This document shows positions 53,294 through 55,284 of a DNA stretch of 64,000 nt, piece by piece. The notes under the pieces were generated by a model. The model was given only the letters and a program-made list of their open reading frames with translations. It had not been told where the DNA came from and ran no database searches. The stretch spans positions 1-64,000 of the forward strand of contig JBFLZD010000001.1 of the NCBI GenBank assembly GCA_040756435.1, written 5' to 3'. This DNA comes from Spirochaetota bacterium (GTDB lineage Bacteria > Spirochaetota > UBA4802 > UB4802). The translations under genes were made by a program, and so were the position numbers. The stretch's first letter is position 1; each line of letters opens with the position of its first letter.

Positions 53294-53710
53294 ATGATTG
53301 AATTTGAAGACAAAACATGCTTTGGTTGCGGAAAATCAAATGAAAGAGGTTTAAAGCTTCACCTTAAGTTTGATCCAGACACAAAAACAGCATATGGTGA
53401 GTTTAAAGCAGATCAAACATTAGAGGGGCCTCCAAATATAATCCATGCCGGCATCATAGCCAGTATTTTAGATGAAACTATGATGACCGTAAATAAGTAC
53501 ATGGAATATATAGCTTTAACAGGGGAAATAACCATTCGTTATTTGCAACCAGCTTTTATTGAAGAGAATTTGTATATCAGGGGCTGGTTTGTAAAAAAGA
53601 ATAAACGTGTCATTGAGAATAGGGCTGAGATTGAAAACGAAATGGGGAAAATAGTTGCCCGGGCTAAAGCCAAATATATTGAAGTTGAAGAAATACCCCA
53701 ACCAGAATAA
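53294..53710 (+). CDS. PaaI/hotdog-fold thioesterase
   Basis: A 138-residue hotdog-fold thioesterase of the PaaI/HGG-motif type, hydrolysing an acyl-CoA. The N-terminal CFGCGKSNERGLKLHLKF has two Cys typical of this sub-group. The central PPNIIHAGIIASILDETM contains the H-A-G motif with catalytic Asp/Glu. The remaining strands end in ARAKAKYIEVEE. It may act with the acyl-CoA synthetases of the window, but no direct linkage is seen. tRNA-Leu follows 11 bp after its stop. Confidence 0.85.
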   Translation: MIEFEDKTCFGCGKSNERGLKLHLKFDPDTKTAYGEFKADQTLEGPPNIIHAGIIASILDETMMTVNKYMEYIALTGEITIRYLQPAFIEENLYIRGWFVKKNKRVIENRAEIENEMGKIVARAKAKYIEVEEIPQPE

Positions 53711-53721
53711 ACTATTTTTTT

Positions 53722-53805
53722 GCCGAAGTGGTGGAATTGGTAGACGCAGCGGACTCAAAATCCGCCGGGGGCAACTCCATGAGGGTTCGAGTCCCTCCTT
53801 CGGCA
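53722..53805 (+). tRNA. tRNA-Leu (anticodon CAA)
   Basis: A class II tRNA of 84 nt. Acceptor GCCGAAG pairs with CTTCGGC, the anticodon arm is GCGGA-CTCAAAA-TCCGC (anticodon CAA), a long variable arm follows, and the T arm is GAGGG-TTCGAGT-CCCTC. CCA is not encoded. Its 3' end is the apparent origin of the repeat array that follows. Confidence 0.95.
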
Positions 53806-54537
53806 AATATTATTAATTGGATATGTGATACATATCCAATATGAGTGTTTACGGGTCCCTCCGTTGGTAAAAAATATATATTGGATAAGATATACATATC
53901 CAATGTAGGTGTTAGCGAGTTTCTCCTTTGGCAAATAATATTTAATTAGATATGTGATACATATCCAGTATGAGTGTTTACGAGTCTCTCCTTTGGCAAA
54001 AAATATATATTGGATAAGAGATACATATCCAATGTAGGTGTTAGCGAGTTTCTCCTCTGGCAAATAATATTTAATTAGATATGTGATACATATCCAATAT
54101 GAGTGTTTACGAGTCCCTCCATTGGCAAATAATATATACTGGATATGTGATACATATCCAATGAGAGGTTGTGCGAGTCCCTCCATTGGCAAATAATATA
54201 TACTGGATATATGATACATATCCAGTATGAGTGTTTACGAGTCCCTCCATTGGCAAATAATATATACTGGATATGTGATACATATCCAATGAGAGGTTGT
54301 GCGAGTCCCTCCGTTGGCAAATTATATATATACTGAATATGTGATACATATCCAGATATCCAGTATGAGTGTTTACGAGTCTCTCCTTTGGCAAAAAATA
54401 TATATTGGATAAGAGATACATATCCAATGTAGGTGTTAGCAAGTTTCTCCTCTGGCAAATAATATATACTGAATATGTGATACATATCCAGTATGAGTGT
54501 TTACGAGTCCTTCCGTTGGCAAATTATATATACTGGT
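53806..54537 (+). repeat. Tandem array of tRNA-Leu 3'-end-derived ~64-bp units
   Basis: Eleven full units of 64-65 bp (one of 74 bp) directly after tRNA-Leu, then a partial twelfth. Unit ends fall at 53871, 53935, 54000, 54064, 54129, 54193, 54257, 54321, 54395, 54459 and 54523. Each has a spacer of A/T, a hairpin (typically GGATATGTGATACATATCC) and a block such as CGAGTCCCTCCATTGGCAAA, a degenerate copy of the tRNA T-arm and acceptor end. Odd units carry GTATGAGTGTTTACGAGT, even units GTAGGTGTTAGCGAGT or GAGAGGTTGTGCGAGT. The layout recalls the E. coli tyrT/rtT repeats. Function is unknown. Confidence 0.9.
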
Positions 54538-54541
54538 TGTG

Positions 54542-54888
54542 TCTCAAAGCAAACTGTGGAGCTTGCAATGACGCTAGTGAAATGTCATTGTGAGCGTAGC
54601 GCTTACACTGAGTGCTTCGACGAGCTCAGCAACCACTTGTCGGAGTGTGGCAATTTCAATTGTATTAGACAAGATTGCTTCGTGCCTGTGGCACTTGCAA
54701 TGACGGGATTGGCCCATGTGTCATTGCAAACGAAGTGCCTGTGCTGAGCTTGTCGAAGCGAAGCAATCTCAATGCCGCAGAAGATGAGATTGCCACGCGC
54801 CTGCGGCGCTCGCAACTATGGGATTGCTTCGTCACTTCGTTCCCCGCAATGACGCGGGTGCAAAGTTATTGCAATGAGGGGTTTTTTG
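54542..54888 (+). mobile_element. Dispersed repeat element, copy 2, inserted into array unit 12
   Basis: About 347 bp, GC-richer than the surroundings. Its left end (TCTCAAAGCAAACTGTGG) and right end (54820-54853 plus ATTGCAATGAGG) match the element at 23394. The longer body contains the inverted pair GCTTCGACGAGCTCAGCA (54614-54631) and TGCTGAGCTTGTCGAAGC (54742-54759) and several near-repeats of CGCAATGAC. It separates the two halves of the twelfth tandem unit. No ORF is credible. It is probably a nonautonomous mobile element or a composite of REP-like units. Confidence 0.75.
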
Positions 54889-54930
54889 ATACATTCCCAA
54901 TGAGTGGTTAGGTAAGTCCATCCTTTCAAA
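54888..54930 (+). repeat. Right half of array unit 12
   Basis: GATACATTCCCAATGAGTGG and the following bases to TCAAA at 54930 align with units 6 and 8 (GATACATATCCAATGAGAGG ...). With TTATATATACTGG before the element (54524-54536), it reconstitutes one diverged unit. Confidence 0.7.
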
Positions 54931-55284
54931 ATGGAATGCTTATTTTGAATCCAAGGATATATTTCTTTCTCAGTATTCTTTGACCTTCTTTAAAAATTTC
55001 CCAAAGACTTTTTTAGAATTACTTTATCCTTTTCGTTATGAGAATAGGGGAGCACAAAAAATGGAAATATTTAAGAGAAAAATATTATTGACATTTTGAA
55101 TTTTTTTTTAAAATACATTAGAACCAAAAAAGGGATGTATAAAGTGACAAAGAAAGTTTTACCTTTCAGCGAAAGGGAGTATATCTGCATTGCGTCTATG
55201 CCTCCCAAGATGGTATGAAATACGAAATGCGGATAGGAAGGATTTAGATGAAATTTTCGCATGATTTTTTTGGAGGTTTCAATA
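54931..55284. other. Intergenic region between the array and the chimeric gene
   Basis: 354 bp, AT-rich. A weak promoter-like pair TTGACA (55088-55093) and TAAAAT (55109-55114) with a short 15-bp spacer is present. Short open stretches near 55190-55265 could be gene remnants (for example LPRWYEIRNADRKDLDEIFA in one frame) but cannot be named. A clear ribosome-binding site for the next gene lies at 55270. Confidence 0.4.

What the first reader, a model, noticed from the sequence alone, without database searches (positions are those of the whole stretch)
53722..54930. Long tandem array built from the 3' end of tRNA-Leu
Twelve ~64-bp units follow tRNA-Leu(CAA). Each carries a degenerate T-arm/acceptor segment (CGAGTCCCTCC..TGGCAAA) plus a conserved hairpin. 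Short tRNA-derived tandem repeats exist in E. coli (tyrT-rtT), but an array this long, with hairpins between copies, seems undescribed. If transcribed with the tRNA, it would give a repeated RNA resembling tRNA 3' ends that could bind RNase P, RNase Z, the CCA enzyme or LeuRS.
Basis: partly seen in the sequence, partly recalled or inferred. Interest (0 to 1): 0.82.

Follow-up and report, generated by a model that had tools for sequence, protein, structure and literature searches.

The report
Tandem repeats spawned from a tRNA end
Behind a leucine tRNA gene of an uncultured spirochaete, the last 20 or so bases of the tRNA plus a small hairpin have been copied about eleven times in a row; it is a real, fast-changing repeat of a kind already known from E. 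coli, most likely a by-product of copying errors, with no sign in the sequence that it works as a tRNA-mimicking RNA.

Summary
The array is real. About eleven degenerate 64-bp units (the first overlapping the tRNA) follow tRNA-Leu(CAA) at 53788-54536, with a 129-bp two-unit super-period. The stretch 54541-54890 is not array but a dispersed palindromic repeat. The window is from a Spirochaetota MAG. Among about 40 relatives, only the sister species (G001, A05DMB-I-13) has the array: shorter, decaying towards the distal end; congeners G002 and G004 have a bare tRNA. First units are 89% alike between the two species, later units only about 68%, so the arrays turned over independently. The tRNA-like segments are no better conserved than the hairpin, lack the 5' acceptor strand, and the hairpin shows no covariation beyond shuffles. 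This fits slippage or unequal exchange and speaks against a selected tRNA-mimic RNA. Closest known case: the E. coli tyrT/rtT repeats (178 bp x 3.1, each with the tRNA 3' end), re-measured here. Unexpected: the genus has further arrays built from tRNA 5' ends, at tRNA-Arg(TCG) in three species and tRNA-Gly(CCC) in this one, so tRNA ends may be recurrent amplification points. Verdict: new member of a known kind, moderate interest; transcription untested.

The parts
53721..53806 (+). tRNA-Leu(CAA); its last ~18-20 nt (53788-53807) are the first copy of the repeated segment
   Evidence: ARAGORN; Rfam RF00005 56.4 bits at 53722-53805
53788..54536 (+). tandem array: ~11.5 units of 64 bp with a 129-bp two-unit higher-order period; each unit = tRNA 3'-end-like segment + AT-rich linker + hairpin + ATGAGTGTTTA-like tail
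   Evidence: TRF, manual unit split and alignment, lag analysis
53816..53840 (.). first hairpin (ATTGGATATGTGATACATATCCAAT); its palindrome core recurs in every full unit and, at <=2 mismatches, almost nowhere else in the genome
   Evidence: the repeat finder, genome pattern search: 11 places in the array, 2 weak ones elsewhere
54541..54890 (.). NOT part of the array: dispersed palindromic intergenic repeat (..GATTGCTTCG..CGCAATGACG..)
   Evidence: 62 matches over the genome at E<=0.001
53294..53710 (+). conserved thioesterase-like gene directly upstream of the tRNA, used as synteny anchor (name from recalled fold-family resemblance, not tested)
   Evidence: 96-100% identical in congeners; followed by tRNA-Leu(CAA) in 25 of 26 spirochaete loci

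Best explanation
The array is a selectively near-neutral tandem amplification of the 3' boundary of the tRNA-Leu(CAA) gene. In the common ancestor of this species and G001, a segment running from inside the T-loop, across the tRNA 3' end, to ~44 bp downstream was duplicated. This leaves the tRNA itself intact, so it is tolerated. The palindrome beside it (inferred) favours polymerase stalling and template slippage. Once two copies existed, unequal exchange or slippage expanded the array in one- and two-unit steps, giving the 129-bp period, and partly homogenised it within each species. Shown: the array, its orthology at the first unit, absence in other congeners, species-specific turnover, higher-order period, decay in G001. 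Inferred: slippage as the mechanism, the role of the hairpin, absence of function.
For: Same locus, same unit design and near-identical first unit in G001 (10.9% different) while later units differ by 31.6% between species, 16.8% within G000 and 27.9% within G001. Alternating similarity at lag 2 and lag 6 (0.10-0.11 against 0.19-0.21 for odd lags), i.e. amplification of two-unit blocks. Bare tRNA in G002 and G004. tRNA-derived segment no more conserved than the stem in either species: 0.135 v 0.122 and 0.32 v 0.24. Decay in G001. No covariation above shuffles. The same kind of duplication, with the endpoint inside a tRNA and the tRNA kept intact, is seen at tRNA-Gly(CCC) (25 bp x 3, identical copies) and tRNA-Arg(TCG), where no 3'-end mimicry could apply.
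Against: Three tRNA-end arrays among ~43 tRNA genes in one genome is more than the general density of arrays predicts: about 5-8 unrelated arrays of TRF score >=100 in 504 kb, several coding or CRISPR-like. Something about tRNA ends may therefore be special. The hairpin pairs in 88.7% of cells across units, above the column-slide control (51% at most), so weak constraint on it is possible. The proposed ancestral breakpoint in G002 is only suggestive (shuffle p 0.02-0.03 in two of four comparisons).
Confidence: 0.72

Rival explanations
1. The array is transcribed as a 3' extension of pre-tRNA-Leu and acts as an rtT-like RNA or a decoy for RNase P, RNase Z, the CCA enzyme or LeuRS.
For: No terminator-like site is found on the + strand between the tRNA and the array's end, so read-through is possible; the E. 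coli tyrT repeats, with the same design, are annotated as the small RNA RttR.
Against: Units lack the 5' acceptor strand, so no acceptor/T-arm minihelix can form in cis. In both species every downstream unit has at least one change in the 7-nt acceptor strand (alignment). No extra conservation of the tRNA-like part. Strong decay in the sister species. No credible Rfam match other than the tRNA.
Confidence: 0.1
2. Tandem attachment-site scars: a tRNA-targeting integrase left repeated att cores; the prophage remnant next door is the last guest.
For: A ~22-kb insert carrying a phage structural module begins directly after the array and is absent in G001; tRNA 3' ends are classic att sites (general knowledge).
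Against: G001 has the array without the phage, so the array came first. The 44-bp spacer of every unit is also what follows the intact tRNA, leaving no foreign DNA between copies. No integrase was recognised among the proteins scanned, and no further tRNA 3'-end copy lies on either strand up to 84 kb. Related arrays sit at tRNA 5' ends.
Confidence: 0.08
3. The repeated palindrome is a cluster of protein-binding sites (operator, partition or replication-type iterons) that happens to carry tRNA sequence.
For: A 19-bp palindrome core recurs about 11 times and at <=2 mismatches only twice elsewhere in the genome, both weak.
Against: In G001 the palindrome is intact only in the first unit and damaged in most others; it is absent at the same locus in G002 and G004; there are no dispersed sites as a regulator would need.
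Confidence: 0.06
4. Assembly artefact of a MAG.
For: Both genomes that carry the array are draft assemblies; repeats are prone to misassembly.
Against: Two independent assemblies have it at the same place with different, internally diverged units; the contig continues for 113 kb beyond (167,691 bp in all).
Confidence: 0.03

Closest known systems
E. coli tyrT/tyrV rtT (RttR) repeats
   Same: Tandem repeats directly downstream of a tRNA, each carrying the tRNA's 3'-terminal ~19 nt; re-measured here as 178 bp x 3.1 copies with exact AATCCTTCCCCCACCACCA in each.
   Different: There the units are long, nearly identical (95%), include CCA and are annotated with a small RNA and a small ORF (tpr). Here the units are 64 bp, ~11 copies, degenerate, no encoded CCA, with a palindrome and no recognised product.
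tRNA-derived att duplications left by integrative elements
   Same: Duplicate the 3' end of a tRNA gene.
   Different: Those flank kilobases of foreign DNA; here copies are 64 bp apart with host-derived spacer and no integrase was recognised nearby.
Ordinary minisatellite-like tandem repeats with higher-order units
   Same: Two-unit super-period, species-specific turnover, decay.
   Different: The boundary falls inside a tRNA gene, and similar tRNA-end arrays recur in the genus.

Membership tests
rtT / tyrT-type tRNA 3'-end tandem repeats | tandem copies immediately downstream of a tRNA gene | tested here: met
rtT / tyrT-type tRNA 3'-end tandem repeats | each unit contains the tRNA 3'-terminal segment | tested here: met
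   18-nt segment at 2-5 mismatches in the downstream units tabulated; E. coli control exact
rtT RNA family itself | sequence homology to E. coli rtT RNA | tested here: not met
   Rfam scan of 53600-55000 finds no bacterial small-RNA family besides tRNA
rtT RNA family itself | RNA released from the repeats on tRNA processing | not testable with these tools
   no transcriptome
integrase att-site scars | recombinase gene and foreign DNA between the repeats | tested here: not met
   spacer is 44 bp of host sequence; no integrase among the scanned proteins of the neighbouring prophage block
structured non-coding RNA | covariation supporting the hairpin | tested here: not met
   covariation score 0.139 v 0.129 +/- 0.017 in shuffles

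The most novel reading that the evidence does not exclude
In this spirochaete genus tRNA gene ends, both 3' (Leu-CAA) and 5' (Arg-TCG, Gly-CCC), are recurrent sites of tandem amplification, with units joining a tRNA end to nearby sequence that in the Leu and Arg arrays includes a hairpin. This would point to a specific process (fork-transcription conflict, a nuclease acting at tRNA genes, or reverse-transcriptase activity) that copies tRNA ends.
Probability: 0.15. Interest if true: 0.55.

Novelty: new member of a known kind. Interest (0 to 1): 0.3.

Why it matters
It shows that tRNA-end tandem repeats are not an enterobacterial oddity: they arise in spirochaetes, at both ends of tRNA genes, and can be followed through birth, expansion and decay in sister species. 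That makes it a small natural system for asking whether tRNA genes are hot spots of tandem duplication. No new RNA function is indicated.

Tried and rejected
Minus-strand ORFs across the array (154, 136 and 111 aa) were rejected as genes: the 129-bp period is a multiple of 3, so an open frame stays open, and the first runs into antisense tRNA; the ORF in G001 is short and different. Unit elsewhere in the genome: none at E<=0.001. Plasmid collection: tRNA part only. Ancestral pre-duplication flank in G002 with a microhomology breakpoint: only suggestive, not relied on. Covariation of the hairpin: none above shuffles. Rfam: nothing credible beyond tRNA. Promoter-like sites exceed shuffles (16 v 7.5 over both strands), but most are the same AT-rich motif repeated with the units, so they are not independent. 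Literature searches found no description of such arrays in spirochaetes; the library lacks most subscription papers.

Full report
What is there. A tandem array starts inside the 3' end of tRNA-Leu(CAA) and runs from 53788 to 54536. TRF describes it as 64 bp x 11.5 or, better, 129 bp x 5.8. Each unit has four parts: a segment like the last 20 nt of the tRNA (CGAGTCCCTCCTTCGGCAAA), an AT-rich linker, a palindrome (ATTGGATATGTGATACATATCCAAT) and a tail (ATGAGTGTTTA). The first unit overlaps the real tRNA.

Where it is. Relatives found with the upstream thioesterase-like gene are all Spirochaetota MAGs. The gene order thioesterase - tRNA-Leu(CAA) is present in 25 of the 26 named loci. The own genome is a 3.6-Mb draft in 126 contigs.

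Who has it. G002 (which matches UBA2205 likewise) and G004 have the tRNA and the upstream gene but no array. G003 lacks the upstream gene and this tRNA in its draft. None of the other named loci with the tRNA shows tRNA-tail copies or a nearby tandem array.

How it evolved. The first units of the two species differ by 10.9%, close to the divergence of the whole flank (88% identity), so the element is orthologous. Later units differ by 31.6% between species but 16.8% within G000 and 27.9% within G001, and similarity peaks at lags 2 and 6. That is the pattern of independent expansion in two-unit blocks. In G001 the array decays: mismatches to the tRNA end are 0, 3, 7, 3, 9, 5 over 18 nt.

Is it functional? 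Three tests speak against a selected tRNA mimic. The tRNA-like segment is no better conserved than the stem (0.135 v 0.122 in G000; 0.32 v 0.24 in G001). The hairpin shows no covariation above shuffles. The units contain no 5' acceptor strand, so no acceptor/T-arm minihelix can form in cis. The hairpin does pair better than slid controls, so weak constraint on it cannot be excluded. Transcription could not be tested. The strong predicted folding of the whole stretch (z = -6.3) is what repeated palindromes would be expected to give by themselves.

Other tRNA-end arrays. A scan around the 43 tRNA genes of the own genome found two more arrays, both of tRNA 5' ends: 100 bp x 3.4 between tRNA-His and tRNA-Arg(TCG), each unit starting with GCGCCCGTAG[CT]TCAG, and 25 bp x 3 at tRNA-Gly(CCC). 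The Arg array has relatives in G003 (83-bp units) and G004 (115-bp units), both at contig ends, while G001 and G002 have none. Units in G003 and G004 also contain a hairpin (AAATGTTTGAAAAACATTT). Arrays of score >=100 that are neither coding nor CRISPR-like are rare in 504 kb of the same genome, so three at tRNA ends is notable, but I did not build a matched intergenic control and give this only as a lead.

The phage neighbour. Compared with G001, G000 carries extra DNA from about 54541 to 76393, with portal remnant, head, tape-measure, baseplate and tail-fibre genes and a diversity-generating retroelement. It most likely entered after the array existed, because G001 has the array without it. 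No integrase was recognised among the proteins scanned, and no further tRNA 3'-end copy was found up to 84 kb.

Comparison with the known. E. coli K-12 tyrV is followed by 178-bp repeats (3.1 copies, 95% match), each with an exact copy of the tRNA's last 19 nt, annotated with the small RNA RttR. The present array is the same kind of arrangement without sequence homology. It differs in short degenerate units, high number and the palindrome.

Verdict. Observation confirmed; interpretation partly supported. Most likely a near-neutral slippage/unequal-exchange product at a tRNA boundary (0.72). New member of a known kind.

Noticed in passing
G000:C1:71076-74203 (L048:7076-10203), within the insert that starts at window 54541: Diversity-generating retroelement in a prophage remnant: Mtd-like tail protein with FGE-sulfatase/C-lectin end, Avd protein, a template-repeat-like stretch and a reverse transcriptase.
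   Followed up: partly
G000:C39, L022:1615-1954: 100-bp x 3.4 array of units starting with the 5' end of tRNA-Arg(TCG), between tRNA-His and tRNA-Arg; related arrays in G003 (L110:1-232) and G004 (L116:6212-6437), absent in G001 and G002.
   Followed up: partly
G000:C31, L023:1556-1630: 25-bp x 3 perfect tandem repeat of the 5' end of tRNA-Gly(CCC).
   Followed up: partly
window 54541-54890: Dispersed palindromic intergenic repeat family, 62 matches in the genome; a similar stretch lies upstream of tRNA-Cys in L043:1179-1359.
   Followed up: partly
G000:C16:20932-23975 (L138:932-3975): CRISPR-like array (repeat ..CCCCGCTAATAGGGGATTGAGAC..) followed by several other tandem arrays with GC-rich hairpin units (ACAATAATGTCACCCC..GGGGT).
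   Followed up: no
G003 contigs C5 end and C48 start (L111, L110); G004 contig C11 end (L116): Contig breaks fall at the tRNA-Arg array, suggesting that such arrays fragment MAG assemblies and are under-reported.
   Followed up: no
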